From Gammaproteobacteria bacterium (GTDB lineage: Bacteria; Pseudomonadota; Gammaproteobacteria; JAADHS01), in NCBI GenBank assembly GCA_013151745.1, contig JAADHS010000259.1:1-37942 (forward strand): a DNA stretch of 37,942 nucleotides. The letters are read 5' to 3'. The notes beneath the pieces were generated by a model. That model saw only the letters and a program-made list of their open reading frames with translations, searched no databases and was not told the origin of the DNA. Positions 5,986-27,325 of this stretch are shown in pieces (position 1 is the stretch's first letter; each line of letters begins with the position of its first letter). A program made the translations under genes and the position numbers.

Positions 5986-8280
5986 ATGAAGACCGTTCCA
6001 CGTTATGTTGGCCTGCTATTGACAGGCGTGCTGCTGAGTATAAACAGCGCCCTTGCCGACAATATCACCATCATGGTTAAAACAAAAGGCAATGGTACCC
6101 CCATTGAGGGCGCAACCGTTGTTCTTGATGAAGGTCATGACTATGATGAAACAGGAAAAACCGGGCGTATTGAATTTTCCGATATAACCTGGCCCAGTAA
6201 AATTAAAGTACTGGCAACCGGGTTTGAGACGTTGGTAAAGTCCATTCCACAAGGCACCGAAGAATTCACCCTCTATCTGGAACCGCTCGCCATGGAAAAT
6301 GAAGGCCTGGAAGTCACGGCAGAGCGACTGGTCGAAAAAGCATCAAAGTTAACACTGTCTACCCCCGAGCTGATTAAGGCGGCGGGCAGTGGTGGCGATC
6401 CACTCAAGGCGATTACGGCGTTGCCGGGCATTGTCGCGACCAGTGAAGGCTCTGCGGAAGTTTACATGCGCGGCAGCAACGGCAACGAAAACATCACTTG
6501 GGTTAATAATACACCGGTCGGTTATCTTTACCACTTTGGCGGTTTTCAATCAACGATCAACTCCGCGTTGATTGAAGATATTAATGTCTTTTTAGGGGGC
6601 TTTCCCGTTCAGTACGGTGATGCGCTAGGCGGGGTGGTAGATGTAAAGCTACGCACACCCAAAAATGATCGTATGCGTTATAAATTTGACATATCTACCA
6701 TCACCAGTTCATTTTTGGTGGAAGGCCCTGCGGGGAAATCGGGTGGCGACAGCTTTTTTGTGGCCGGGCGACGCAGCTACCTTGATCTAATTTTCTCACC
6801 CAGCGATGCCACTGATGCATTTGCCGAAGATGACGAGGATGATCCCGACCAAATCGTTCTGGTTCCTCGCTTCTACGATTTCCAGGCACTCTATCGCCAC
6901 CAGCTTGATAACGGATATCTGGACAGCTATTTATTTACCGCTGGCGATGAAATGGAGATGGAGTTGCGTAGTTCGGCCAAGTCCGACCCCCAGCTTGCCG
7001 GTGAAGCACGCGAGAAAAAGGAATACCAAACCGTGGGCCTGACTTGGCAACAACGTTGGAATGAGAAGTGGGATAGTCTTGCAACACTGGCTTATATTCG
7101 CGAAAAGGGAGTCAACCGCCTGGGCCGTGATGAGCAAGGAGACGCTTTTTTTTCTCGTGTTGAAGAGAAAACATTTTTCCTGAAAGAAGAACTACGTTGG
7201 CACCCTCAAACTGATTTACAGTTTAGCTTTGGTTTTGAAAGTGGTTACGCAAATATCCCCGTTGACGTCTATCGACCCCGAAGTTATAGGGAGGATGACC
7301 CTGATTTCGATTTTACAACACAAAAAAAATATCGTCTTAAAAAAACGCTTAAAGCGAGTGAAATTTCTCCTTATGTAAAATATCGTCAACAGTGGACTAA
7401 CCGGTTAAGCACACAGTTGGGGCTGCGTCACACCAACATCGAATTAACGGGCGGATTCCATGCCCATAAATTTTCACCCCGCGCTACCTTGGAATATAAG
7501 TTGACCTCCGATACCTTATTAACGGCAACTTGGGGGCAGTACATCCAGATGCCAGCAGGTGAGGAGGTGGTTGAGTCTTTTGGTAATCCTTCACTATTGA
7601 TGACCGAAGCGGAACATCGCATTCTCGGCATTGAACATCAGCTCAATCCGCTTTACAGTATTAAGGCGGAGGTTTACCATAAACCAATGAAAAATCTGAT
7701 CATTTCCATCGATGAGAATGATCCACCCGATAACTTTGTGAATCGGGGCACAGGTGAGGCCTATGGCTTTGATCTGTTCATCAAACGCAAACCCAGCCAA
7801 GGCAAAATCGGCTGGCTGTCGCTCTCCTGGGCCAAGTCGCGCCGCACCAATGAAATTACCAGCATCACCCGAGATTTTTCGGGTGATCAACCGCTTACCG
7901 TTACGGCAGTGTGGGGGCAACCTTTTGGGGGCAGCTGGAAACGTTGGGACTGGAGCATCAAAGCTTTGGTACACTCAGGAAGACCCTATACCGCAGTGAC
8001 CAGCCGTAGCCGGGATGTGGCGAATAATCGCTGGATCGCCGAGTATGGCGAGCACAATGCCGAGCGCCTGCCTACCTATTACAAGGTGGATTTGCGTATT
8101 GGTCGCGACGTGCTGTTTAATGAATCCAAGTTAAAATTTTATCTTGATTTGCAAAATATTACCTTCGCTAAAAATATTATCGAATACGACTACGGCAATG
8201 AATACGAAAAAATTGACAACCCTACCGAAATCACCGGCATGTCATTTTTTCCTTTTTTCGGCGTAGAGATGGAGTATTAA
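5986..8280 (+). CDS. TonB-dependent outer membrane receptor with N-terminal carboxypeptidase-regulatory-like domain
   Basis: This 764-residue protein has a Sec signal peptide (MKTVPRYVGLLL...SALA). Residues about 27-100 form a beta-sandwich domain of the carboxypeptidase-regulatory type. Next comes a stretch resembling a TonB box (EGLEVTAER, about 106-114), a plug domain (about 125-225, with AITALPGIVATSEGS, YMRGSNGNE and VQYGDALGGVVDV) and a long beta barrel ending in an aromatic residue (Y764), as is usual for outer-membrane insertion. An acidic loop (AEDDEDDPDQ, near 280) lies early in the barrel. The ribosome binding site AAGGA sits about 8 nt before the ATG. The ligand is unknown: I see no siderophore- or vitamin-specific signature. 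It lies 47 bp after the hydrolase and 3 bp before exbB. Confidence 0.9.
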   Translation: MKTVPRYVGLLLTGVLLSINSALADNITIMVKTKGNGTPIEGATVVLDEGHDYDETGKTGRIEFSDITWPSKIKVLATGFETLVKSIPQGTEEFTLYLEPLAMENEGLEVTAERLVEKASKLTLSTPELIKAAGSGGDPLKAITALPGIVATSEGSAEVYMRGSNGNENITWVNNTPVGYLYHFGGFQSTINSALIEDINVFLGGFPVQYGDALGGVVDVKLRTPKNDRMRYKFDISTITSSFLVEGPAGKSGGDSFFVAGRRSYLDLIFSPSDATDAFAEDDEDDPDQIVLVPRFYDFQALYRHQLDNGYLDSYLFTAGDEMEMELRSSAKSDPQLAGEAREKKEYQTVGLTWQQRWNEKWDSLATLAYIREKGVNRLGRDEQGDAFFSRVEEKTFFLKEELRWHPQTDLQFSFGFESGYANIPVDVYRPRSYREDDPDFDFTTQKKYRLKKTLKASEISPYVKYRQQWTNRLSTQLGLRHTNIELTGGFHAHKFSPRATLEYKLTSDTLLTATWGQYIQMPAGEEVVESFGNPSLLMTEAEHRILGIEHQLNPLYSIKAEVYHKPMKNLIISIDENDPPDNFVNRGTGEAYGFDLFIKRKPSQGKIGWLSLSWAKSRRTNEITSITRDFSGDQPLTVTAVWGQPFGGSWKRWDWSIKALVHSGRPYTAVTSRSRDVANNRWIAEYGEHNAERLPTYYKVDLRIGRDVLFNESKLKFYLDLQNITFAKNIIEYDYGNEYEKIDNPTEITGMSFFPFFGVEMEY

Positions 8281-8283
8281 TCG

Positions 8284-8916
8284 ATGACTATTAAACATGA
8301 TTTTTTGTCTTTGATGAACAGCGGTGGCCCCATCATGTGGGTGATATTTTTCGTCGCCAGCATAGCTATGGTGTTGTTGATATGGGAAGGCTTGCGAGGC
8401 ATCACTCTGATGAAAAGTGCACGCCAGGATTACCAGCAGCTACGCACTGATAATAGTTACTTGCCCACGGTCATAACCAGTGCGAGTCCTATTGCCAAAT
8501 TGCTGGCAGCGACTCATTGGCCAGACGTTGAATCGAAAGAGGATATGGCCAAAGAATTTAATATTCATCTGGCAGAGATTACACCCAAAATGGAGGGCAG
8601 TCTTGCTACCATCGCCATCCTTGGGTCGCTGTTGCCGATGCTCGGACTGCTCGGGACGGTAACAGGAATGATCAACGTTTTTGAAGTTATTGCCCTGCAA
8701 GGCAATGGCAAACCGAATGAAATGGCCGACGGTATCTCCCAGGCTTTGCTCACCACGGCCAGTGGGTTGATCATCGCCATTCCGGTGATCTTCCTTCACC
8801 ATTTACTGTCGCGCCGCGTCAATGCCTTGATGACGATGACCCATCAAGCGGTTCAGTTGATTCTTCACCGCGATATCACGGTATTGAAAGAGGCGCATCA
8901 CCATGAGCACAAATAA
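8284..8916 (+). CDS. exbB: ExbB/TolQ/MotA-family proton channel subunit
   Basis: The 210-residue protein has the three-helix layout of ExbB: a first membrane helix at about residues 17-37 (GPIMWVIFFVASIAMVLLIW), a cytoplasmic stretch, then two helices in the conserved region LGSLLPMLGLLGTVTGMINVF and GISQALLTTASGLIIAIPVIF. ExbB forms a pentamer around ExbD and uses the proton motive force to drive TonB. It starts 3 bp after the receptor stop codon and overlaps exbD by 14 bp, so the genes are surely co-transcribed. TolQ is the main alternative, but the receptor upstream and tonB downstream favour ExbB. Confidence 0.92.
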   Translation: MTIKHDFLSLMNSGGPIMWVIFFVASIAMVLLIWEGLRGITLMKSARQDYQQLRTDNSYLPTVITSASPIAKLLAATHWPDVESKEDMAKEFNIHLAEITPKMEGSLATIAILGSLLPMLGLLGTVTGMINVFEVIALQGNGKPNEMADGISQALLTTASGLIIAIPVIFLHHLLSRRVNALMTMTHQAVQLILHRDITVLKEAHHHEHK

Positions 8917-9319
8917 CCTCTGCCCCATACCTACGCTGAATACAGGGAAACCTGAAATCAGTATGGCTCCGCTGGTGGATATCGTCTTCCTGCTTCTGAT
9001 TTTTTTTATGGTCACCACCGTTTTCCCAGAAAACGATGGCCTGGTAATCGAAAAACCCAGCTCGGAAAATGCAGCGGCGCTGAATGATGAAAAAATCATC
9101 ATCAAATTGAGCCAGCAGGGTATTGCCTACCTGGATAATCGTGCTGTGACGATGGATGATATAGAACGACTACTGAAAATCGAACTGGCCGAAAAACCGC
9201 AACAGATGGTCACCGTTCATGCCGATCGCCGTGCCACCACCGAAGCACTTATCAACGTTATCGATGCAGCCAAAGCGGGGGGAGCCAGACAGTTGGGCAT
9301 TGCCACCGATGCTAAGTAA
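8903..9319 (+). CDS. exbD: ExbD/TolR-family energy-transducing subunit
   Basis: This 138-residue protein has a short cytoplasmic tail, one membrane helix with the family signature MAPLVDIVFLLLIFFMVTTVF, whose aspartate carries protons, and a periplasmic domain with the usual VTVHADRRATTEALINVIDAAKAGG ending. It overlaps exbB at the start and tonB at the end, which points to coupled translation and fixed stoichiometry. It works with ExbB in the inner membrane to power TonB. Confidence 0.92.
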   Translation: MSTNNLCPIPTLNTGKPEISMAPLVDIVFLLLIFFMVTTVFPENDGLVIEKPSSENAAALNDEKIIIKLSQQGIAYLDNRAVTMDDIERLLKIELAEKPQQMVTVHADRRATTEALINVIDAAKAGGARQLGIATDAK

Positions 9320-9998
9320 AATCACTGTTTTTAGTTTTAGCCTGACAGCCGGTATAATCGCAACATTGACTTTGTTGCTTGCTATTGATTTTTTGGCAAG
9401 CTATCGTGCGCCCGCCAAAGAGCAACGCCCATTACTGGTAGTCGATTTGACGACATGGCCTATGCCAGAACAGCAACAAAAAAGAGAAAAGCCAAGTAAA
9501 CCCAAGCCCGCTTCTTTACCCCAATCTGAACCACAAAAGAAAGTGACAAACAAAACCTCTCCCCCATCTGAACAGAAACGCCCCCCCCTTACCAAAAAAA
9601 ACATACCAGAAAAACCACTAGAACCAGTAAAAAAAGAGCCTGTTCAAGAAAGAACAAAAACGGCGGTCAAAGCGGTCAAGGAAATACCCACACACCCTGC
9701 CCTGCCTATCCCTGTGCCCTTCTTTCAACTTACACAAGCGCCACGTTTTTTGCATAGAGAAACTCCGGTCTATCCTGATAAAATGCGGATTCAAGGTATC
9801 AGTGGTATCGTCAGGCTGGAAGCCTTGATTGATAAAAAAGGGCACGTTAAAAAAGTAAACATATTACAATCCGCCGGTGAACATTTTGATGAAGCAGCCA
9901 AACGCGCTATTCTCGCTTCAAGCTTTTACCCCGCAAAAATAAAACACAAACCCGTAGCGGTGTTATTGCGCCTACCCGTCAAATTTAACTTGTTATAG
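9309..9998 (+). CDS. tonB: TonB energy transducer protein
   Basis: I chose ATG 9309, which overlaps the end of exbD by 11 bp, because the protein then begins MLSKITVFSFSLTAGIIATLTLLL with an inner-membrane anchor. An in-frame ATG at 9219 would only add 30 residues translated out of frame inside exbD. The 229-residue protein continues with a long Pro/Lys-rich periplasmic spacer (about 50-130, many KP, PK and EP steps). It ends in a TonB C-terminal domain (about 145-229) with the YP motif (VYPDKMRIQGISGIVRL) and the SSFYPAKIKHKPVAV region. It links ExbBD to the receptor encoded upstream. The gene set is self-contained, suggesting a dedicated rather than housekeeping TonB. Confidence 0.9.
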   Translation: MLSKITVFSFSLTAGIIATLTLLLAIDFLASYRAPAKEQRPLLVVDLTTWPMPEQQQKREKPSKPKPASLPQSEPQKKVTNKTSPPSEQKRPPLTKKNIPEKPLEPVKKEPVQERTKTAVKAVKEIPTHPALPIPVPFFQLTQAPRFLHRETPVYPDKMRIQGISGIVRLEALIDKKGHVKKVNILQSAGEHFDEAAKRAILASSFYPAKIKHKPVAVLLRLPVKFNLL

Positions 9999-13681: not shown

Positions 13682-14716
13682 ATGAAACCGCCTCATTACT
13701 CATTTTTTTTTCTGCTCTTCCTGATACTCGGCTGCGAACAAACAACCGCCATCCATCGCGAGCAAATTGTAGCAATGGGTACGATTGTTGATATCACGAT
13801 TGCCAATACGTCCGAAGAAAAAGCACACCTCGCTATTAAAACCATTGCCGGCATACTTAATGAGCAAAATAAACGTTGGCATGCCTGGCAACCCAGTACG
13901 CTCAGCTTGCTCAACCAGCAATTGCAACAAAAAAAAACCATAACGGTTGACCCAGAAACCGCCGAACTGTTAAGTAAAGCCAAAACGCTCTCTCTTGCCA
14001 GCCACAGCTTGTTCAACCCTGCAATCGGCGAACTGGTTGCGCTTTGGGGCTTTCACAGTGATGATAAAACACCAACTCAACCCCCCCGTCGCCAAGCAAT
14101 ACAAGCCCTCACTAAACAAAATATTTCTATGGCTAATCTATCCATAAAAAATCAGAATATAAGCAGTAATAACCCCCTGCTCAAACTAGACTTAGGAGGC
14201 TTTGCTAAAGGTTATGCCGTTGATAAAGCGATTGAGGCACTGAAACAACAGGGTATTAATAATGCCATCATCAATGCAGGTGGTGATCTCAAAGCAATAG
14301 GAAATAAAGGCTCAAGACCGTGGCGAGTAGGCATTAAAAACCCAAAAACGAACGGGGTGATTGCCTCTCTGGAGACCCATCAAGAAGAAAGCGTAATCAC
14401 CTCAGGCGATTATGAACGATATTTTGAATATAAGGGGCAACGTTACGCTCATCTTATCGACCCCAGAACGGGCTATCCTGCTAATGAAGTCACTGCTGTA
14501 ACGGTTATCCATAACGATGCCGCCACCGCCGATGCCGCCGCCACTGCACTGTTTATCGCGGGACCAACTCAATGGAAAAAAATTGCCAAGGCGCTTAACA
14601 TCACCTTGGTCATGATGATTTTTGCTGATAACCGTATTATCCTCACCCCAGATATGGCTCAACGCATACGCATGGAAGGTCAACCACCCGCTGAGTATAT
14701 TGTTGAGAAATTGTGA
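13682..14716 (+). CDS. apbE: FAD:protein FMN transferase (ApbE), lipoprotein
   Basis: The 344-residue protein has a short signal with a lipobox-like LILGC (cysteine near residue 18), then the ApbE domain: MGTIVDITI, NKRWHAWQPSTLSLLN, LDLGGFAKGYAVDKAIEAL, NAIINAGGDLKAIG, WRVGIKNP, and the metal/FAD-binding end HLIDPRTGYPA with DAATADAAATALF. ApbE attaches FMN to threonine in periplasmic or membrane proteins such as RnfG/RnfD, NqrB/NqrC and other flavinylated electron-transfer proteins. No such target gene lies nearby, so its partner is encoded elsewhere. It stands alone on the plus strand, 198 bp after ogt. Confidence 0.93.
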   Translation: MKPPHYSFFFLLFLILGCEQTTAIHREQIVAMGTIVDITIANTSEEKAHLAIKTIAGILNEQNKRWHAWQPSTLSLLNQQLQQKKTITVDPETAELLSKAKTLSLASHSLFNPAIGELVALWGFHSDDKTPTQPPRRQAIQALTKQNISMANLSIKNQNISSNNPLLKLDLGGFAKGYAVDKAIEALKQQGINNAIINAGGDLKAIGNKGSRPWRVGIKNPKTNGVIASLETHQEESVITSGDYERYFEYKGQRYAHLIDPRTGYPANEVTAVTVIHNDAATADAAATALFIAGPTQWKKIAKALNITLVMMIFADNRIILTPDMAQRIRMEGQPPAEYIVEKL

Positions 14717-14772
14717 TTATTTGGAACAAAAATAGATAGGGAGAGGCAGCATACAAACTATGCTTTTTTTGG

Positions 14773-14805
14773 ACAAAAAAAAGGGGTGAGAACATCACCC
14801 CTTTT
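14773..14805. terminator. Strong intrinsic terminator, best on the minus strand
   Basis: AAAAGGGGTGA (14779-14789) pairs perfectly with TCACCCCTTTT (14795-14805) around the loop GAACA. Read on the minus strand the stem is followed by eight T residues (plus-strand A run 14775-14782), a canonical terminator placed 20 bp beyond the stop codon of the 31-codon ORF. On the plus strand only four T residues follow the GC part of the stem, but it may also stop transcription coming from apbE. Confidence 0.82.
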
Positions 14806-14825
14806 ACATAGTGCTCTAAAAAAAA

Positions 14826-14921
14826 TCAGAAAGAAACACCAACAAAACCTAAAATAGCAAGAATAACGGTAATCGCGATAACAAAAGTATTATCTTGCTT
14901 ACAAATTAATTCAGATCCCAT
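14826..14921 (-). CDS. Predicted 31-residue single-span membrane peptide
   Basis: ATG 14921-14919 opens a 31-codon frame, with the N-terminal part MGSELICKQDN and then a hydrophobic helix of about 20 residues (TFVIAITVILAILGFVGVSF) running to the C-terminus. A good ribosome binding site (AAGGGG, 8 nt before the ATG) precedes it. A sigma-70-like promoter (TATACT at 14997-15002, TAGACT at 15021-15026, 18-bp spacer) lies about 75 bp upstream, and a canonical minus-strand terminator follows. This arrangement argues for a real, separately transcribed small gene. I do not recognise the peptide. Size and hydrophobicity fit either a small membrane-complex subunit or a type I toxin. It has one cysteine (C7) and is not NqrM, the four-cysteine small protein often found near apbE. 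Confidence 0.6.
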   Translation of the reverse strand: MGSELICKQDNTFVIAITVILAILGFVGVSF

Positions 14922-14996
14922 CGTTAAAACCCCTTATTTAAAATAACTCACTAAAAAAAACACTATTTTTATTGTTGAGGAAAACCCTCAGGCTTA

Positions 14997-15026
14997 AGTA
15001 TACCCATACCTGATAAAAAAAGTCTA
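14997..15026 (-). promoter_or_regulatory. Candidate sigma-70 promoter for the 31-codon gene
   Basis: On the minus strand TAGACT (15026-15021) and TATACT (15002-14997) are separated by 18 bp, matching the -35 and -10 consensus at four and five of six positions. Transcription would start about 70 nt before the small ORF. The leader contains a short hairpin, TGAGG/CCTCA around GTTTT. Confidence 0.45.
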
Positions 15027-15058
15027 GTATTCATTGACCCTTTATTAAATTGGGAATA

Positions 15059-15179
15059 AAACACAATAACTTATGTAAGTGACGCACAAATCTAGTGGGC
15101 TAAAGTGAGTATTTTTTGATTGAAGAACATTTAAAGAGGAGCCGAAGTTATGATGCTAAATGTATAAGTTATTGTGTTT
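15059..15179. repeat. 16-bp perfect inverted repeat bracketing 89 bp at the yceH 3' end
   Basis: AAACACAATAACTTAT (15059-15074) is the exact reverse complement of ATAAGTTATTGTGTTT (15164-15179). The right arm includes the last codons and stop of yceH. The 89 bp between the arms contain no convincing ORF. The structure may be a long terminator-like hairpin after yceH, a small inverted-repeat element, or a duplicated gene end. Confidence 0.55.
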
Positions 15180-15843
15180 CATTCCTTAGATTCAAATGTG
15201 CCTTCACTTGTTCCAGCTCTTGGCGCAACATCGTCACATCCTGACGCAGCAATACAATCTCTTTTTCTGTAGACAGAGCTAAGCTTTCAGGTTCATTTGA
15301 AAGCACAACTTCTGGCGAAATAACCCTACCCGCTTCCTCCGATAACAAATGCATAAAACGAGATTCTCTGCGACCAGGTTCTCTGGGTAATTTCGCGACA
15401 AAAGCTTGGTCTGAGTGCGTCATTAAAACCAATAACGCCATTTCAACTTCCTGCACGTCAGCAAAACCCGCCAAACGAGCAGTGCGAGTACGGAGTTCTC
15501 CTGGAGTCTGTGCACCTCGCAAAAATAAAACGCACAGCAATGCTAGTTCCTGTTTTGATAACTGTAGAGCACTAAATTCAGTGTTAGCAAAACGATGTTG
15601 ATATTTTGGAACACGACTACCTGCACCGGTAGACTCGATAATAAAGTGCTTTTTAACCAGCGCATCAACGATGGCTTGAACTTCGCTTTCATCAAACGCA
15701 ACGACGGGGTCTCTATTTGATTTCTGATTACAGCCTAGCATCAAAGCATTCAATGACAGCGGATACTGATCAGGGGTCGTGCTTTCTTTTTCAAACATCA
15801 CACCTAAAACACGTGTTTCGTTAAAATCCAATTCAATTTTCAC
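15169..15843 (-). CDS. yceH: YceH/UPF0502 family protein (DUF480)
   Basis: The 224-residue protein begins MKIELDFNETRVLGVMFEKESTTPDQYPLSLNAL and contains CNQKSNRDPV and LLCVLFLRGAQTPGELRTR, all typical of YceH. The fold is two winged-helix domains, but a cellular role is not established. The C-terminus has a short heptad-like helix (about 190-220). It is the last gene of the minus-strand run, 14 bp after uup, and its stop codon lies inside a 16-bp inverted repeat. Confidence 0.9.
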   Translation of the reverse strand: MKIELDFNETRVLGVMFEKESTTPDQYPLSLNALMLGCNQKSNRDPVVAFDESEVQAIVDALVKKHFIIESTGAGSRVPKYQHRFANTEFSALQLSKQELALLCVLFLRGAQTPGELRTRTARLAGFADVQEVEMALLVLMTHSDQAFVAKLPREPGRRESRFMHLLSEEAGRVISPEVVLSNEPESLALSTEKEIVLLRQDVTMLRQELEQVKAHLNLRNETQ

Positions 15844-19348: not shown

Positions 19349-20074
19349 TCAAATATTTAACAATTTTTCTGGATGAGTCGTAACGAGTGCCAGGGATTTT
19401 TTTTCGCCAATAAGTTTGCTTGCCGCTTCTACACCCTGCTTTAGTTTTGGTGGACGATATTGCAGGTTGTGACTATCGGTGGCTATGAAAGTTGCCGTTT
19501 GGTTTTCCAGTAGTAATTTTGCTGTATCGAAAGCGGCTCTGCCAAATTGACCAGTGATGCTGCTGGCCGTAATCTGGAGAAGACAGCCTTCATCGACAAA
19601 GGGTTTGAGTTTGCGGATATCTCGTTGCAACTCCCGATTACGTTCGGGATGAGCAATAACGGGACATACGTTGTGTTTAGTCAGCCACTTGATTATATTG
19701 ATACTTCCCACTGGAACGTTGCTGTGGGGTAGTTCCAGTAAAATAACGTTGGCACCTTGCCACTTACCCAACCAAGGCATGTGTTCATCGCTGATCATTT
19801 GCATAATTTCAGGACCAATACGTACTTCTGCAGCGAGTTTAAGCTTTATATCAATATTTTCTTTTTTTACTATGGTTACAAATACGTTGAATATTTTTTT
19901 AAGTGACGCTCCGGTGTTAGGGTAACGTCCTGCTTCTATATGAGGGGTAAGAATTTGTGTTGTCACGCCCTCGGCTACAGCCAGACGAAGCATAGCGAGG
20001 GCTTGATGAATATCTGCTGCGCCATCATCGACGCCGGGAAGAATGTGACTATGTATGTCTATCATAAGCATCAT
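19349..20074 (-). CDS. CpsB/CapC-type PHP-domain tyrosine phosphatase
   Basis: The 241-residue protein opens MMLMIDIHSHILPGVDDGAAD, the metal-binding motif of the PHP family, followed by ILTPHIEAGRYPN, VIAHPERNREL and FIATDSHN. These are the usual metal-ligand segments of CpsB/YwqE manganese-dependent phosphatases. In capsule and exopolysaccharide operons such enzymes remove phosphate from the tyrosine-rich tail of the partner kinase. Here the kinase gene lies directly upstream (55 bp), a standard kinase/phosphatase pair controlling polymer export. It is cytosolic, with no signal or membrane segment. Confidence 0.9.
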   Translation of the reverse strand: MMLMIDIHSHILPGVDDGAADIHQALAMLRLAVAEGVTTQILTPHIEAGRYPNTGASLKKIFNVFVTIVKKENIDIKLKLAAEVRIGPEIMQMISDEHMPWLGKWQGANVILLELPHSNVPVGSINIIKWLTKHNVCPVIAHPERNRELQRDIRKLKPFVDEGCLLQITASSITGQFGRAAFDTAKLLLENQTATFIATDSHNLQYRPPKLKQGVEAASKLIGEKKSLALVTTHPEKLLNI

Positions 20075-20129
20075 GCTCGATTCATAAAGACAAAAAAATC
20101 AAGAAAAATATCTTTTGCTGTTCTGTTTT

Positions 20130-22367
20130 TTACGCTTTGGCATTTTCTCCGTAGTGTTTTCCGTAATAGTTACCATAATAATTGCCATAATAGCGATTAC
20201 CATAGTAGCTTTTAACTTTTTTCATATCGACCACAGAAAGGACGGCACCCAAAGGTTCAATATTGTTAGCACGAAGACGTTTCACCGTTTCTTTTGCCAG
20301 TGGATAGGTGGTGCTATCGAATTTTATAGAGAGTATAACCCCATCTACGATGTTACCGAGCACCAGAGCATCACTCACCGGAAGTACGGGGGGTGTGTCG
20401 ATGATAATGTATTCAAAATCAGCTTTGAGTTTTTCAAATGCCACTTTAAATGTTTTGGATGAGAGCAACTCTATGGGATTAGGCGGTATGGTACCCGTCG
20501 TCATAATAAACAAATTTTCACATTCTTTATCTCGTCGGTAGCACGCTTCCACTGGATTGGTGCCAGCTAGCCATTCTGAGAAACCAGGACCTTTCTCAAG
20601 CCCCGTCACGCGACGAATATCAGGGTGGCGCATATCACCGTCAATTAATAATGTACGACCTAGATGACTGAATGAAATAGCAAGGTTACTGGATAAGGTG
20701 GTTTTACCCTCTCCCGGCTGAGGCGAGGTTACCATAAGCGTTTTGATCGGATTGTCAAGATTGGAAAATATAATGCCTGTACGAACGTGACTGACTGCTT
20801 CCGCAAAGGCAGAACGCGGTTCACTGAGCAGATAGCGCTCTGCAATGCGTTGTTCATTTTTGTGTCGTGGTAACTTAGGGAATTCAGCCATGGTAGGAAC
20901 CAGCAAACGTTCTTCAATGTCTTGACTTCGTTTAAACGTGTTATCAAGTCGGTTACGCAATAACGCCAAAGCAATGCCCGCAAAGAGCCCTAAAATAAGA
21001 GAAATTAACACCATACGTTTTTTATTTGGTTTATAAGGCATGTCTGGTGCCTGAGCGGTGTCAATCACTCGCACGTTGGTGATATCGCTATCTCGTTCCG
21101 TATTCACTTCTTTGAAACGGGCTAAAAAAGTATCATAGAGTTGTCGGTTCGTTTCAACTTCTCGCTCGAATTTGACCAACTGAAACCCTTTACCAGTCAG
21201 GGTTCGCATTTCTCTTTGCTGTTGATCCATTGCCCGCTGAGCTTCTTCTTCTTTGGCGATCGCAGCTTCATAGGCTTTACGAATACTGGTGCTAACGTGT
21301 CTTATTTCTTGCACAATACGGCTACGCGCTTCTTCCAGATCAGCTTTAGCAGCAATAATTCTAGGATGTTTGCTCCCATAGCGCTCCAAAAGTTCAGACG
21401 TTTTTCTTTCCAAGTTGGCCAGGTCATCCATCAGTCGTTCGACGAGCTCACTTTCTAACAAAGGCACAACAACATCATAAGACTGCCCCTCTTGTAAAGC
21501 TTTACTGACTTGGCGAAGTTGAATTTCAACCTCTATTTTTTTTGTTTGTGCCGCCACTAATTTAGAGGCCAGGCTTGACATTTTGGTGCTAACCAATTGT
21601 TTTCGGTTTTCTGTATCCACCATGGACTCCCTAGTCTGGAAGGCCTCGAGGTTTGTTTCTGATTGTTCAAGTTGTTGACGTAAATCATCTAAACGGCCAC
21701 GTAACCAGGACGTCGCGTCTTTCACAGTAGAGAGACGGGATTCCATGCCATATTCAGTATAAGCTTTGGCAACACCATTAACGATTTCTGCCGCTGATTT
21801 TGAATTTGGTGATTCATAATTAATTACGACAATTTGACTCTTTTGTCCACCTTGCACAGTGAGATTTTCTTGAATTATTTTTATCGCCAGAGAGCGTCGC
21901 TGTTCAGCAGTCAATCTCTCTTCCTCGCCAAACCATTCCTGTATATTGTCAGGTAACAGTGCTCTATAACCCGCATTACCTTTCCCATCTAAACCAAGAA
22001 AAATATCACGATCAGCCAGTTTCAGGCTATCAACAACGGTTTCAGCAATAGCACGACTACGGATGATTTCATATTGAGTTTCGTAGAACAGCATTAGTGG
22101 TGCTGCCCCTTCTATGGATTGAACATTGACTAATTTTGGTTGTGCAGGCTCGACTAATAATGTGGCATTGGCCTTATAAATTGGCACGGCAGTAAACGCG
22201 GAAAGACTCCCAATGAGCGTACCGATGAGAGTCAGGGCTAAAATACCCCATTTGTTGCGCATGACAATACGCCAATAATCAGCAAGAGTATGTTCATCGC
22301 CCAGCTCTTCTTCAACATTTTGGTAAAGCTCGTCAGCTTCCATTTGGGGCGTGAGTGATCTATTCAT
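20130..22367 (-). CDS. Wzc/GumC-type polysaccharide co-polymerase and BY-kinase
   Basis: The 745-residue protein contains an N-terminal membrane helix (about 40-60), a Wzz-type periplasmic region with a long coiled coil (about 220-420), a second helix (about 452-470, with the PYKPNKKR motif just before), and a cytoplasmic tyrosine kinase. The kinase has Walker A PQPGEGKTTLSSNL (about 550-562), Walker A' LLIDGDMRHPDIRR (about 573-586) and Walker B IIIDTPP (about 654-660). The tail (719-745) carries nine tyrosines in YYGN-like repeats, the expected autophosphorylation cluster. The protein governs chain length and links the polymerase to the outer-membrane exporter. Its phosphatase partner is encoded just downstream and the Wza-type exporter just upstream. 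Confidence 0.92.
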   Translation of the reverse strand: MNRSLTPQMEADELYQNVEEELGDEHTLADYWRIVMRNKWGILALTLIGTLIGSLSAFTAVPIYKANATLLVEPAQPKLVNVQSIEGAAPLMLFYETQYEIIRSRAIAETVVDSLKLADRDIFLGLDGKGNAGYRALLPDNIQEWFGEEERLTAEQRRSLAIKIIQENLTVQGGQKSQIVVINYESPNSKSAAEIVNGVAKAYTEYGMESRLSTVKDATSWLRGRLDDLRQQLEQSETNLEAFQTRESMVDTENRKQLVSTKMSSLASKLVAAQTKKIEVEIQLRQVSKALQEGQSYDVVVPLLESELVERLMDDLANLERKTSELLERYGSKHPRIIAAKADLEEARSRIVQEIRHVSTSIRKAYEAAIAKEEEAQRAMDQQQREMRTLTGKGFQLVKFEREVETNRQLYDTFLARFKEVNTERDSDITNVRVIDTAQAPDMPYKPNKKRMVLISLILGLFAGIALALLRNRLDNTFKRSQDIEERLLVPTMAEFPKLPRHKNEQRIAERYLLSEPRSAFAEAVSHVRTGIIFSNLDNPIKTLMVTSPQPGEGKTTLSSNLAISFSHLGRTLLIDGDMRHPDIRRVTGLEKGPGFSEWLAGTNPVEACYRRDKECENLFIMTTGTIPPNPIELLSSKTFKVAFEKLKADFEYIIIDTPPVLPVSDALVLGNIVDGVILSIKFDSTTYPLAKETVKRLRANNIEPLGAVLSVVDMKKVKSYYGNRYYGNYYGNYYGKHYGENAKA

Positions 22368-22419
22368 CTTGCACTTTTTTCCCGTGGATTTTATGGTTAT
22401 TTTTTTGTTTTTTGTTCAA

Positions 22420-22935
22420 TTAAAAAAATGATTCCCCTACATTTAGGATATCACCCGGACCTAAGGGACTATTTAATTTAACATTTACCGTTTCTGTGTT
22501 CGACTTTTCAGGTATTTTGATCATTTTACCTTTTGAACCACGGATGGTGAAACCACCCGCGATGGCAATAGCTTTACGGACGGTGAGGCCATTAATGTAA
22601 TTATAACCACCAGGATTTTTGACCTGACCCGTAACATAAAACAGGCGATACTCAAGAATCGAAACAGTTACTTTGGGTTTTTTAAGATATCCATCCAATA
22701 GCAAACCAGCGAGTTTTTTTTCGACATCACCGACAACGAGGTCACCAATAAAAACTTCGCCTAACAAAGGGAATGATACCGTTTCTTCTGTTCCAACACG
22801 GACTTGAGGCAGGCTTAAATCGGGCTCACCATAAACAATGATAGCCAACAAGTCACCCGGCCCAATAAGATAAGGCTCAGCAGCATGGCTGTTGATATTC
22901 ACAAGCAAAAAAAAAGTGAAAGCGATATATTTCAT
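22420..22935 (-). CDS. Short polysaccharide export protein (Wza/OPX family)
   Basis: The 171-residue protein has a Sec signal (MKYIAFTFFLLVNINSHA), the Poly_export domain (YLIGPGDLLAIIVYGEPDLSLPQVRV to KPKVTVSILEY, about 22-103) and one SLBB-type domain (about 104-170: VTGQVKNPGGYNYINGLTVRKAIAIAGGF). It has no lipobox cysteine. It ends at residue 171, so it lacks the further domains and amphipathic helix that let E. coli Wza cross the outer membrane. Short OPX proteins of this type elsewhere are thought to work with a separate outer-membrane barrel; the gene directly upstream encodes one. Confidence 0.88.
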   Translation of the reverse strand: MKYIAFTFFLLVNINSHAAEPYLIGPGDLLAIIVYGEPDLSLPQVRVGTEETVSFPLLGEVFIGDLVVGDVEKKLAGLLLDGYLKKPKVTVSILEYRLFYVTGQVKNPGGYNYINGLTVRKAIAIAGGFTIRGSKGKMIKIPEKSNTETVNVKLNSPLGPGDILNVGESFF

Positions 22936-22965
22936 AATATTTCATAGGATACAGATTCGGAAATA

Positions 22966-22992
22966 ACAAAGCGAAAACTCTCTTCGCTTTGT
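22966..22992. promoter_or_regulatory. 10-bp perfect hairpin in the leader of the OPX gene
   Basis: ACAAAGCGAA (22966-22975) pairs with TTCGCTTTGT (22983-22992) around a 7-nt loop. It lies in the 146-bp gap between the barrel gene and the OPX gene, about 30 nt before the OPX start on the minus strand. No T-run follows on that strand, so it may be an mRNA-stability or attenuation hairpin, or a protein-binding palindrome. Confidence 0.4.
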
Positions 22993-23081
22993 CGCTAAAC
23001 AGTGCAATGCTGTGTTCCATGACGATGATATGGTATGTCAAATAAACCTGGCTTTATAACAGCAACATTAGGTGAGACCTA

Positions 23082-24353
23082 TCAACGAAAACTCCTGGTA
23101 CTGTTGATACCAGGTTGCAAGGTTAAGGTAATCATTAATTCATTAGTTTTATAATCTGCATTGGAGATATTGGAATCTCTTTCTCTATAAGTATACCGCC
23201 CTGAGAGACTGATGCGCTCCGATAAACTGTAATTCGTGCCCAAATTGAAAAAAAGCAGATCATCTTTGCGATTGTCGCTATAGTCGTCCTCCTGTGCGTG
23301 GGCACCTGCATACAAGCTCCATAGCGAAGTTAAGGAATGATACCAAGTTGCGCCAATACGGGTCATTACAAAATAACTCGCCGTTGCAGCTTCAACCGCT
23401 ATACTCTCTCTAGGTGTGCGAATTAAGGAAAATACAAACAAGTCTGTCGCCAATGGGGTCCATTCAAGTTCGCCTTCCACACCAACCCCATTAAAATCAT
23501 CCAGGTTGGCTTGATCCAGGTCTTTGTTAACATAACCCAGACGAATTTCACCTCTTGTCAGTTCCGTTGCTTCCCAACGTGCACCAACAAAATAACGTTG
23601 TTCCTGACTGTCCAGATTCACTGCCAAGGGGTTAATTGAAGTATTCACATAATCAATGTCGGTTAAACGCGCCTCGAATAACCAGGACGTTTTCCCTGTT
23701 ACGTTGTAATAAAACGTGCCAGAAAAATTAAGTTGATCACGATCACGCACTTCTTGCTGATTATTCGTATAATCGAGCCCTTTTGCTTCGACACTAAACT
23801 CGAATTGCCCCTGGTTTGTTCTACGACCATAGAGAGCGCCTGCAAATAAACGAGACTCTTCCCACGTATCAGGTTTAATTGAGGTCTCTAAACGAGCCCG
23901 AGATGCACCGCGTAGATCGTGTGACCATCGATACCCCCCCTCCAGGTTGACATCTATTTTTTCGGTGAGATCCAAAGCCAGAACAGCGTCGACGTTATGA
24001 TCATCAAAATTTTCATCGTCGTTATCCAGATAGAACCCATAGGCACCTTGGTAGCCAATATCCAGACTATGCTTGCTAAATAAATTGCGATAATTCAAAT
24101 TCGGCTCTAAAGTAAAAATCTGATCGTCTACTTCGTTCGTTTCGTCTCGAAAAATATTGTCATTTTGTGTTGCACTGATTGCCAGATCACCATAAAATCC
24201 AGGCGCTTGCTCCACACTACTGTTTCTAAATTGTGTTGTCGTTATCTCCGTAAAGAGTGATGCTCTAAGCTGTGCTTGGGTTACGCCCGTAAGTGCTGCG
24301 CATAAAAGCACACCACACACAGTTTTTGTGTGCATGTCTATTTTATTCGTCAC
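23082..24353 (-). CDS. Outer-membrane beta-barrel protein of exopolysaccharide export
   Basis: This protein of about 423 residues starts at GTG 24353, supported by AAGGA about 7 nt upstream; ATG 24335 is an alternative. A signal peptide (TKTVCGVLLCAALTGVTQA) precedes a chain of alternating hydrophobic/polar strands with many aromatic residues (for example FLDNDDENFDDHNVDAVLALDLTEKIDVNLEGGYRW), typical of a large barrel. It resembles the beta-barrel porin 2 / EpsL-like proteins found in polysaccharide clusters. The position between Wzy and the short OPX protein suggests it forms the outer-membrane channel for the polymer. The last residues (STRSFR) do not show the usual terminal aromatic, though F422 is close. 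Confidence 0.78.
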   Translation of the reverse strand: MTNKIDMHTKTVCGVLLCAALTGVTQAQLRASLFTEITTTQFRNSSVEQAPGFYGDLAISATQNDNIFRDETNEVDDQIFTLEPNLNYRNLFSKHSLDIGYQGAYGFYLDNDDENFDDHNVDAVLALDLTEKIDVNLEGGYRWSHDLRGASRARLETSIKPDTWEESRLFAGALYGRRTNQGQFEFSVEAKGLDYTNNQQEVRDRDQLNFSGTFYYNVTGKTSWLFEARLTDIDYVNTSINPLAVNLDSQEQRYFVGARWEATELTRGEIRLGYVNKDLDQANLDDFNGVGVEGELEWTPLATDLFVFSLIRTPRESIAVEAATASYFVMTRIGATWYHSLTSLWSLYAGAHAQEDDYSDNRKDDLLFFNLGTNYSLSERISLSGRYTYRERDSNISNADYKTNELMITLTLQPGINSTRSFR

Positions 24354-24587
24354 GCTACCATCCTTAGCTTAGAAAACTTTCTTTTTGTCCTAAAATTACA
24401 AGGCTTATTTATTTTTTTAATGCCTCATCCTCGTTACCTTTACAATCGTAGCCATTCAACCCCCTTCCGAAATTCGTCAGTTCAAGGCGAAAAAATGTGT
24501 TACGCCGTATTTAAACATCCTGTTTCGCATAACTGATCATTCTTTAAACTAGAAATAGCGGATTTCAGAGAGAATCTGAACGATGAC

Positions 24588-25079
24588 CTACGATCCACTC
24601 ATTACCAGCCCTCCGCCAGCACCATTATTCGGAATGACGGCCGAACCTCGAGTTCGAACACGTTGTACTTCTTGCCGCGCAGCTTGAGACAAAACAAAGG
24701 GGGCTCGTCCAGCCGCCGCCGCGGCCGTCACCGTAGCAGGATCAATATCTGCAGCAATGGCAGCCTGAACGATATTAGTTTCGCATGCTGTACGCCAAGC
24801 GTTCGTACTTAAATTACTTTCTACATTGCGACACGCTGTACTCGGCAGCTCGGTTAATAAATTAACTGCGGCCGTCACGACATCCCCCGCGCGCTCTTCA
24901 GGGTATAGTTGAATGACCTCTACTGCGGCCTCACTAATGGATTGACCGTTGGTTACTGCATTTTTCAATACGGCATCCAGGCTAAGACCCGCTGTAATAT
25001 CACTTTGAACATCAGCGATTGCTACGCTGATTGACAAGGTAGATATCACTATAAAAACAGATATTTTTTTATGCAACAT
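24588..25079 (-). CDS. Secreted alanine-rich protein of unknown function in the polysaccharide cluster
   Basis: I do not recognise this 163-residue protein. It has a clear Sec signal (MLHKKISVFIVISTLSISVAIA) and a good ribosome binding site (AAGGATG about 10 nt before ATG). The mature part is largely helical and alanine-rich, with repeated motifs of the form G-S/D-x-x-x-V-x-x-A (GLSLDAVLKNAV, GQSISEAAVEVI, DIDPATVTAAAAAGR). Two cysteines 17 residues apart (ACRNVES...RTAC) could form a disulfide. The C-terminus is glycine-rich (NNGAGGGLVMSGS). It lies between the polymerase and the barrel genes on the same strand and so probably works in the periplasm with the exporter. Confidence 0.7.
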   Translation of the reverse strand: MLHKKISVFIVISTLSISVAIADVQSDITAGLSLDAVLKNAVTNGQSISEAAVEVIQLYPEERAGDVVTAAVNLLTELPSTACRNVESNLSTNAWRTACETNIVQAAIAADIDPATVTAAAAAGRAPFVLSQAARQEVQRVRTRGSAVIPNNGAGGGLVMSGS

Positions 25080-25169
25080 GGGCTAATCATCCTTATGTGA
25101 GTAGATGTATTAGAAATTAGTGACTCTCTAGCTGACAGCATAGCATGTTAAAGCTTTTTTCGTGTGGAA

Positions 25170-26624
25170 TCAACAACGTTTTTGCCTGTGACCCAGGGTT
25201 GAAGCGCAGACTCCAATCGCCAATAAGACAAAAAAATAAGCCATATTGGCTGGAATCTGGAAATTAAAATCAACAAAGGCATGAAGTAATTGTGCAGTAA
25301 CTGCCGTACTGGCAGCAAATAACATCGCTCGAAAAAAGCGATCTCGCCTCTTAAGATAGGCTCGTAAATTACTGACAAATATCAATAACAAGGCGCCAGC
25401 TAAAAGAGTAAAACCAACTAGGCCACTTTCCGAAAGCACTTCCACATAATCATTGTGGGCATGATCATTGTAGCCCGCACCCGTTTCTGCTCCGCGATAA
25501 AGCGGGTTCATCCACTGAAAAGTACCTCCGCCGGCACCGGTTATAGGGTAATCTTTAAAAATTTTATAACCCGACTGCCATACCAGGATACGATTATTAT
25601 CCAACGTTCCATTAGCCAGCTTGTCGACTAAACCCGCAGCGCCAACCCAGCCAATCGCCGCGATAATCAGTAAAGCGATCCAAGGGAATAAGCGAACCTC
25701 TGGTGCTTCTGAACCAGAGGCAATACGTACAAACAATATAATGACAAGAAGTGAAACAACCATGGCTAACGCCCCGCCTCGTGAGGTGGACAGAAATAGA
25801 GCACCAAACATAATAATAACGGACAGCACGATCAAGTTACGCCTAGCCAAGCAGCTTTGAGCCATACTACGCAGCCGCGATTTCCAATTTACGTGAATCT
25901 GCGGTGCTTGCATGCGATAGAACATTAGACCGAGACCAATCGGGATCGTCATCTCCATCAAGCCCGCAAAATGGTTCCGGTTTATATAGGTTCCTGATAA
26001 GCTACTAGGAGAGGGATTCCAAAAAATAGTTAAATAGGGCGCGACAAAGGCCATAAGACCATAAAGTGCTTCAAATAAGCCAACAAAAAAAAGTACCCAA
26101 GCCAGCGTTTTTAAACGTGAGCGGCTATGTATTAATTGCAAAACTAAAAAAAACAGGCCAACATAAGCCGCCGCCTTAAAAGCAGCCACTAATGTCGCAC
26201 CAGGATCATTACTGAGACTACTCCCTTCACTCAATAAAACACCCAGCGTATAGTCTTTAAGGTTATAACCTACAGGGCTTAAAGCTTGCAATAGAGAACT
26301 TGAAACCGGGAAGGCTTGCAAAAAATTAAATACAACCCACAAACTAAAAAGCAATAACGGAATGCGCGCTTTGATGACTGCGGATGAAAGCGCTTTGGGA
26401 ACCAACATTTGGCTAAGCAACCAAAGAATAAAAATACTAAAAACGATGACTTCCATTAGCCCCCAAGACCAGGGGCGATTACTCCCCAAAGGAATGGGTA
26501 ACCAAACAAGGAGCACCAATAAAGCATAAAATGCAATGGCATTGAGCATCCGTGCTACCGTTTGCACGCCAGACTCATGATGACCGATCACTTCTTTATC
26601 CGTCGCTGAATATGACTGAGGCAT
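25170..26624 (-). CDS. O-antigen ligase / Wzy-type polysaccharide polymerase
   Basis: The 484-residue protein is polytopic, with about 10-12 hydrophobic segments. The Wzy_C / O-antigen ligase signatures are present: GTYINRNHFAGLMEM, LSTSRGG, a large loop containing KDYPITGAGGGTFQW, and YNDHAHNDYVEVLSESGLVGF. Such proteins join lipid-linked repeat units in the periplasm. In this context a polymerase for an exopolysaccharide is more likely than an LPS ligase. Its ATG overlaps the stop codon of the upstream VpsP-like gene (TAATG), so translation is coupled. Confidence 0.88.
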   Translation of the reverse strand: MPQSYSATDKEVIGHHESGVQTVARMLNAIAFYALLVLLVWLPIPLGSNRPWSWGLMEVIVFSIFILWLLSQMLVPKALSSAVIKARIPLLLFSLWVVFNFLQAFPVSSSLLQALSPVGYNLKDYTLGVLLSEGSSLSNDPGATLVAAFKAAAYVGLFFLVLQLIHSRSRLKTLAWVLFFVGLFEALYGLMAFVAPYLTIFWNPSPSSLSGTYINRNHFAGLMEMTIPIGLGLMFYRMQAPQIHVNWKSRLRSMAQSCLARRNLIVLSVIIMFGALFLSTSRGGALAMVVSLLVIILFVRIASGSEAPEVRLFPWIALLIIAAIGWVGAAGLVDKLANGTLDNNRILVWQSGYKIFKDYPITGAGGGTFQWMNPLYRGAETGAGYNDHAHNDYVEVLSESGLVGFTLLAGALLLIFVSNLRAYLKRRDRFFRAMLFAASTAVTAQLLHAFVDFNFQIPANMAYFFVLLAIGVCASTLGHRQKRC

Positions 26625-27325
26625 TATTGCTCTTTATTTTGAGTCTTTAACAAGCTGGCCAAATAATTCAAATCATCTTCATCATTTAATAAAGGTTTAA
26701 TACGCTCTACCCAAGCTTGCTGTACCGCCTGTTGAATCATCGCTCGCGGCTGAAGTTGTACTGCACGTTCTAACTCTCGAGAAAGCTGTTGTTGCATATC
26801 TTCTGATAAATTAGGCCACAGTGTTAAGCCTATACTAATCACTTTACTTTGCACACCAATTTCCCATGGCGCAAGTACCATGGCTTTTTCTAATGCCGCT
26901 ATGGCTTCCTCGTCTAATTCTTGATTACTTATTTTACTTTGTACCAAATGAGCCCAAGCAAAACCCCAGGAAGGACGAAGCTGTGTTGCTATACGAAAAT
27001 AATAAATGGCTTTTTTGCGATATTGGTGGGCGTGCTGAGTCCAACGTCGTTGCTGTAATGCCTGCCATTCATTTAAACGCCCCAAATCCATTGCGTAATC
27101 GGCACTTAAGGGGTTCAACTCAAAAGCAGCTTGCAGGCGAGTACTTGCCCGCTCCCATTCTTCAATATTTTCAATATGCAGAGTTTTTTCCCATTGACTC
27201 ATTACATTCCGCACGGGCATGGCCTGAACATCGGCCCACATAAATCGTGCCGACCAATACAGCAGACATACCGAAAGGGTCAGTGCGCTGAATATGAACA
27301 ACCTGTGAAGCAGTTTATTTTTCAT
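26624..27325 (-). CDS. Membrane-anchored TPR-like protein, similar to VpsP-type polysaccharide proteins
   Basis: The 233-residue protein has one N-terminal membrane helix (about 9-27: LFIFSALTLSVCLLYWSARF) and a helical periplasmic part with TPR-like units (LQAAFELNPLSADYAMDLGRLNEWQAL, IATQLRPSWGFAWAHLV, LEKAMVLAPWEIGVQ, LERAVQLQPRAMIQQA). Layout and position before a Wzy gene resemble the VpsP family of exopolysaccharide clusters; this is recall, not a search result. It is the first gene of the cluster, has ribosome binding site AGAGG, and is coupled to the polymerase gene by TAATG. It may be an assembly or scaffold factor for the synthesis complex. Confidence 0.65.
   Translation of the reverse strand: MKNKLLHRLFIFSALTLSVCLLYWSARFMWADVQAMPVRNVMSQWEKTLHIENIEEWERASTRLQAAFELNPLSADYAMDLGRLNEWQALQQRRWTQHAHQYRKKAIYYFRIATQLRPSWGFAWAHLVQSKISNQELDEEAIAALEKAMVLAPWEIGVQSKVISIGLTLWPNLSEDMQQQLSRELERAVQLQPRAMIQQAVQQAWVERIKPLLNDEDDLNYLASLLKTQNKEQ

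What the first reader, a model, noticed from the sequence alone, without database searches (positions are those of the whole stretch)
14773..15026. Stand-alone gene for a 31-residue membrane peptide
A promoter-like TAGACT-18 bp-TATACT, an AAGGGG ribosome binding site, an ATG, 31 codons ending in a 20-residue hydrophobic helix and a canonical terminator follow one another on the minus strand. Such a complete unit is unlikely by chance. The peptide matches nothing I know. It could be a type I toxin (about 70-nt leader with a hairpin), a stress peptide, or a small subunit of a membrane complex.
Basis: partly seen in the sequence, partly recalled or inferred. Interest (0 to 1): 0.6.

Follow-up and report, generated by a model that had tools for sequence, protein, structure and literature searches.

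The report
Tiny membrane protein tied to respiration
The 31-residue membrane peptide is a real, conserved gene from an unannotated multi-copy family found almost only in bacteria that carry one uncharacterised protein pair (an ion-channel-like protein and its partner), often beside an unusual oxygen-respiration gene cluster; it is probably a small helper subunit there, and very unlikely to be a toxin.

Summary
ORF 14826-14921(-) encodes MGSELICKQDNTFVIAITVILAILGFVGVSF with a ribosome-binding site, a sigma-70-like promoter and a terminator. The signals alone are near chance level; conservation makes the case. The genome has two diverged paralogs, and a genome of another genus in the same family has an ortholog with a similar promoter and leader.
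Profile searches recover an unannotated family (Pfam, NCBIfam, PHROGs: no accepted hit) of about 30-41-residue single-helix peptides: strong ribosome-binding sites, an Asp just before the helix in nearly all, and 1-5 paralogs per genome. Orthologs in another family are under purifying selection (dN/dS about 0.17).
In 369 genomes of the class, the peptide occurs in 25 of 33 genomes that carry a vWA protein partnered by a MotA/ExbB-like protein, and in 0 of 336 without it. One subtype lies directly upstream of that pair in nine genomes. In several families, and on contig C274 of this genome with a paralog, the pair sits beside a divergent cbb3-like oxidase cluster.
Best reading: a paralog of a small accessory subunit or maturation helix of this oxidase/vWA system. 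The window copy's own function is inferred. Type I toxin is disfavoured. No expression data exist.

The parts
14826..14921 (-). ORF for the 31-residue peptide MGSELICKQDNTFVIAITVILAILGFVGVSF (stop codon included)
   Evidence: paralogs and ortholog; single helix 8-30 predicted
14930..14935 (-). AAGGGG ribosome-binding site, 8 nt before the ATG
   Evidence: strong Shine-Dalgarno sites in nearly all family members
15021..15026 (-). -35 hexamer TAGACT (AATACTAGACT; the G001 ortholog has AATACTGGACC in the same register)
14997..15002 (-). -10 hexamer TATACT, within a 17/20 identical block GGTATACTtAAgCcTGAGGG shared with the G001 ortholog
14976..14990 (-). predicted 5'-end hairpin TGAGG-GTTTT-CCTCA of the transcript, about 55 nt before the ATG
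   Evidence: similar TGAGGGAAATCCCCTA in G001
14779..14805 (-). intrinsic terminator hairpin AAAAGGGGTGA-TGTTC-TCACCCCTTTT followed by T's; possibly shared with convergent apbE
13682..14716 (+). neighbour: ApbE family (PF02424), convergent
15169..15843 (-). neighbour: DUF480 / YceH-like protein, upstream

Best explanation
The window gene encodes a small single-helix inner-membrane protein, one of at least three paralogs in this genome, made from its own short mRNA (about 215 nt). Family members most likely work as accessory subunits or maturation helpers: the helix packs against a larger membrane complex, with the nearly invariant Asp at the membrane edge as a contact. The complex most likely involved is an uncharacterised system of a divergent cbb3-type (CcoN/CcoO-like) heme-copper oxidase, CcoG, c-type cytochromes and a MotA/ExbB-like + TM-vWA protein pair. 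In this genome that system is on contig C274, where one paralog lies inside it; the window copy is a separately expressed paralog, perhaps an alternative version for other growth conditions. Shown: gene and family reality, co-occurrence, adjacency; the helix is predicted. Inferred: expression, binding to the complex, and the role of the window copy.
For: Paralogs and ortholog; family profile with Asp invariant in all 45 aligned members (one later f22 member appears to fit the motif less well). dN/dS about 0.17 in eight orthologs of another family with conserved promoter, ribosome-binding site and terminator. Co-occurrence: short-frame peptide in 25/33 genomes with the vWA protein and 0/336 without (Fisher p 3e-32 uncorrected for phylogeny). 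A profile built only from the window's family (A1) already found nine other genomes with short-frame hits, all vWA-positive. In family f75, G305 has both and G076/G203 have neither. Codirectional peptide -> ExbB-like -> vWA order in G206, G082, G309, G171, G024 and G374-G377. In this genome the C274 paralog lies between the spermidine-synthase-like gene of the oxidase cluster and the ExbB/vWA pair; in G206 another paralog lies directly upstream of the cytochrome half. CcoN-like, FixO-like, cytochrome c, FGE-sulfatase domains; 4Fe-4S protein read as CcoG, and MotA_ExbB domain. vWA fold, with PDB matches including the NorQD complex. Oxidases are known to carry tiny subunits, e.g. the 36-residue CcoM of the P. 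stutzeri cbb3 oxidase (PMC10433244).
Against: The window copy is not near the oxidase cluster. Most paralogs in other genomes are at unrelated loci. Co-occurrence may partly reflect shared ancestry; eight vWA-positive genomes (f64, f101, f34, f2, one f52) show no detectable peptide, and G379 (66% complete) has the peptide without a detected vWA gene. No expression or interaction data.
Confidence: 0.42

Rival explanations
1. Small membrane regulators of several different complexes. The family has diversified, each paralog modulating a different transporter or enzyme; the link with the vWA/oxidase system holds for one subtype and is otherwise shared ancestry.
For: Paralogs at many unrelated loci with their own promoters; the adjacent subtype has its own N-terminal motif W-[IQVM]-D-[IV]-S in most cases, which the window peptide lacks.
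Against: No short-frame member in 336 genomes without the vWA protein; the f75 contrast; two different cluster positions in G206.
Confidence: 0.33
2. Subunit of the MotA/ExbB-like + vWA ion-driven machine itself rather than of the oxidase.
For: The tightest conserved order is peptide -> ExbB-like -> vWA; the vWA protein keeps an Asp in its N-terminal helix as ion-channel B subunits do.
Against: The G206 C155 paralog is beside the cytochrome half, not the ExbB half; the C274 paralog is not in the ExbB operon.
Confidence: 0.15
3. Type I toxin: a membrane-damaging peptide held down by an antisense RNA.
For: Size, one hydrophobic helix, stand-alone short mRNA with a structured leader; several copies per genome.
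Against: Strong ribosome-binding sites in most members and the site unpaired in the centroid fold here; no promoter on the opposite strand within 14650-15200; diversified paralogs at conserved loci under purifying selection; no hit to Rfam antitoxin RNAs.
Confidence: 0.04
4. A free stress peptide acting on the bilayer, like E. coli YohP, without a fixed partner.
For: Own promoter and terminator; many small membrane proteins are stress-induced (PMC12719787).
Against: Specific Asp and helix conservation and genome co-occurrence argue for a protein partner.
Confidence: 0.06

Closest known systems
CcoM / CcoQ / CcoS, small proteins of cbb3-type cytochrome c oxidases
   Same: Tiny membrane proteins serving a C-family heme-copper oxidase; CcoM is 36 residues (PMC10433244)
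   Different: No detectable sequence similarity in PDB profile searches; this family is multi-copy per genome and mostly outside the oxidase cluster
CydX / CydH of cytochrome bd oxidase
   Same: About 30-37-residue single-helix accessory subunits (own knowledge)
   Different: No accepted family hit; a cbb3-like, not bd, oxidase is in the neighbourhood of family members
ZorA/ZorB and MotA/MotB-type ion-driven complexes (for the co-occurring pair)
   Same: MotA_ExbB domain; B subunit with N-terminal helix, Asp and long coiled helix; weak ZorA/ZorB hits
   Different: C-terminal vWA domain and oxidase neighbourhood; scores far below the NCBIfam ZorA cut-offs
NorD of the NorQD complex
   Same: vWA-domain protein linked to a heme-copper-oxidase-superfamily enzyme (PDB match 9qhe/9qhg)
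   Different: The protein here is membrane-anchored and paired with an ExbB-like protein; a MoxR/NorQ ATPase was not looked for
LH1 gamma polypeptide (8k5o chain v)
   Same: 29-residue single helix; similar over 21 residues including D and VILAILG
   Different: E = 0.52, not significant

Membership tests
Type I toxin | Antisense RNA gene on the opposite strand | tested here: not met
   Consensus scan of 14650-15200 found one promoter, on the minus strand only; a weak or non-sigma-70 promoter would be missed
Type I toxin | Translation start hidden by mRNA structure in the primary transcript | tested here: inconclusive
   Ribosome-binding site unpaired in the centroid, paired in the minimum-energy fold
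Type I toxin | Toxic when overproduced | not testable with these tools
   needs an expression assay
cbb3 oxidase small subunit (CcoM/CcoQ) | Single helix of about 30-60 residues | tested here: met
   helix 8-30 predicted
cbb3 oxidase small subunit (CcoM/CcoQ) | Sequence similarity to CcoM, CcoQ or their families | tested here: not met
   no hits in Pfam, NCBIfam, PDB
cbb3 oxidase small subunit (CcoM/CcoQ) | Copurifies with the oxidase | not testable with these tools
   needs biochemistry
MrpF/PhaF | Pfam PF04066 above gathering score | tested here: not met
   17.1 bits versus cut-off 23.3, one member of 17 only
New small-protein family (this work) | About 30-41 aa, Asp directly before one C-terminal helix, strong ribosome-binding site, short open frame | tested here: met
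   window peptide E 1.4e-10 with A7 (it is in the seed); ortholog E 0.004 from the single sequence
ZorAB defence (for the co-occurring pair) | ZorA above the NCBIfam cut-off | tested here: not met
   24.0 bits versus 500

The most novel reading that the evidence does not exclude
A previously unnoticed respiratory system in a group of bacteria of this class: a divergent cbb3-like oxidase matured or driven by an ion-powered ExbB/MotB-type machine with a vWA head, served by a set of interchangeable 30-41-residue helix subunits, of which the window peptide is one.
Probability: 0.25. Interest if true: 0.82.

Novelty: new variant of a known kind. Interest (0 to 1): 0.52.

Why it matters
It turns an isolated tiny ORF into a testable family of at least 45 members that annotation libraries do not hold, and points to an uncharacterised oxidase neighbourhood with an ExbB-vWA pair. 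If the link holds, it gives a rare case where a set of paralogous micro-subunits can be matched to one respiratory complex.

Tried and rejected
Known families: Pfam MrpF 17.1 bits, below its 23.3-bit cut-off; NCBIfam EYxxD small protein E 1.1; PHROGs none for the window peptide. LH1 gamma E 0.52: not significant. Rfam sraA at 14722-14813(+) is 31.6 bits against a gathering score of 56: probably the terminator hairpin. Upstream regions of the two paralogs share nothing detectable with the window promoter. In 200 genomes drawn from the phylum, one weak long-frame hit apart from this genome. Long-frame hits (G045, G089, G204, G283) and G040 (matches the helix part only, no N-terminal Asp) were set aside as false positives. 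The scan of genome contigs gave only the G001 locus, titled 'uncultured Chromatiaceae bacterium'. No paper found on the oxidase cluster with ExbB/vWA.

Full report
1. Observation. On the minus strand the window holds TAGACT-18-TATACT (15026-14997), AAGGGG (14935-14930), an ATG at 14921, 31 codons and a stop ending at 14826, then a hairpin with T's (14805-14779). The peptide is MGSELICKQDNTFVIAITVILAILGFVGVSF; AlphaFold2 on the family alignment gives one helix, residues 8-30. The signals alone are not statistically remarkable: one promoter where shuffles give 2.6, one terminator where shuffles give 0.3. The terminator lies between convergent genes and may also serve apbE. Neighbours are ApbE (+), and on the minus strand a DUF480/YceH-like protein, an ABC-F-like ATPase and a protein with a weak NfeD match.

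2. It is a gene. With the single peptide as query, the same genome yields two paralogs, C264:578-649 (MSKQRGAATDDTFSVIAITVILAILTFVGMSF) and C274:9987-10058 (MANREASADDNFVVIAMTVIIALLYFVGMSF), and a genome of another genus in the same family (G001) yields MDLICKHDGVYVLAIAAIFGICYAVGISFA. G001 is titled an uncultured Chromatiaceae bacterium. Window and G001 share the promoter and leader in one ungapped register, AATACTrGAC...GGTATACTnAAnCnTGAGGG (31/54, 11 of 1000 shuffles as good); local alignment without the register is weaker (71 of 1000). Window and G001 coding regions are too diverged for a firm ratio (pS 0.56, pN 0.33).

3. It is a family. A profile of those four found distant members in other families (E 2.5e-7 for G201), and iteration gave 45 aligned members. 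They are 29-41 residues, mostly with an ATG and a strong ribosome-binding site; an Asp precedes the helix in every aligned member. One later f22 member (MKSATKGDILIP...) fits the motif less well. Genomes carry one to five copies, sometimes in tandem. In family f71 eight orthologs of one copy show conserved promoter, ribosome-binding site, coding frame and terminator and dN/dS about 0.17. No Pfam, NCBIfam, PHROGs, PADLOC or PDB entry matches significantly.

4. Genomic partner. Several members lie directly upstream of a MotA/ExbB-like gene (PF01618) and a gene for a protein with an N-terminal helix bearing an invariant Asp (SFSDVA), a long coil and a vWA domain (vWA fold by structure search, from a model of moderate confidence, pLDDT 69). 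In 369 genomes of the class, 33 have this vWA protein. The improved peptide profile finds short-frame members in 25 genomes, all among these 33, and none in the other 336 (Fisher p 3e-32). That p ignores shared ancestry. The profile was iterated on these genomes; the first profile, from the window's family only, already gave nine other genomes with short-frame hits, all vWA-positive. In f75 G305 has both, G076 and G203 neither. In f71, 17 of 20 have the peptide and 18 of 20 the vWA protein; all ten good-quality genomes have both. Exceptions: G379 (66% complete) has the peptide without a vWA hit; eight vWA genomes in the class sample (f64 three, f101 two, f34, f2 and one f52) show no peptide. 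In the vWA tree most peptide-lacking genomes form one group.

5. The cluster around the partner. In f23, f81 and f71 the ExbB-vWA pair is followed by a 4Fe-4S protein read as CcoG, and nearby in the clusters read here are a COX1/CcoN-like subunit, a FixO/CcoO-like subunit, c-type cytochromes, a COX1-like fragment, an FGE-sulfatase-domain protein, a fused spermidine-synthase-like membrane protein and a second small helix protein of about 42 residues. The CcoN-like protein matches solved cbb3 CcoN chains (E 5e-61) but scores far below the NCBIfam ccoN cut-off (222 versus 583 bits). In this genome the cluster is on contig C274 and the C274 paralog lies in it. In G206 one paralog precedes the ExbB gene and another precedes the cytochrome part on C155. 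In G242 the vWA gene has no oxidase genes in the 19.5 kb read around it, so presence of the oxidase in all 33 genomes was not established.

6. Interpretation. The simplest reading is that family members are accessory single-helix subunits or maturation helpers of this oxidase/vWA system, as CcoM, CcoQ and CydX are for other oxidases. The vWA protein next to an oxidase recalls NorD of NorQD, a maturation factor of NO reductase (own knowledge). For the window copy this is inference by homology: it is stand-alone, of the LICK subtype, and its nearest ortholog in G001 lies about 2.8 kb upstream of the ExbB gene with other genes between. The toxin reading is weak for the reasons given under rivals.

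7. Limits. All evidence is sequence-based.

Noticed in passing
window 15050-15091 (core), 11 further places in the genome: Dispersed repeat (consensus about AAATTTGTGCGTCACTTgCATAAGTTATTGTGTTTCATTCC), 83-93% alike to the window copy, just upstream of the peptide promoter.
   Followed up: partly
L012:1946-2074 (+) (G000:C274): Second small helix protein, MVEEIGINVIVPILVFLVIIVGAYMISNEALVDVLERRAADK, with relatives in the oxidase clusters of G374, G375, G377, G082, G171 and near the vWA gene of G305.
   Followed up: partly
L255 and L125 (G000:C274); L246, L249, L252, L253: Uncharacterised cbb3-like oxidase cluster with CcoN-like and CcoO-like subunits, a separate 171-aa COX1 fragment, FGE-sulfatase-domain protein, fused spermidine-synthase-like protein and ExbB-vWA pair.
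   Followed up: partly
L125:4839-5285 (-) and counterparts in L118, L119, L127: Small lipoprotein-like protein conserved beside the vWA gene, no Pfam hit.
   Followed up: no
window 5986-9998 (+): TonB-dependent-receptor-like, ExbB-like, ExbD-like and TonB-like genes in a row, by reading the translations.
   Followed up: no
window 19349-27325 (-): Exopolysaccharide-type gene cluster (Wzc-like tyrosine kinase, Wza-like export protein, O-antigen-ligase-like protein), by reading the translations.
   Followed up: no
window 14722-14813 (+): Sub-threshold Rfam match to sraA (31.6 bits, gathering 56), overlapping the terminator; probably chance.
   Followed up: no
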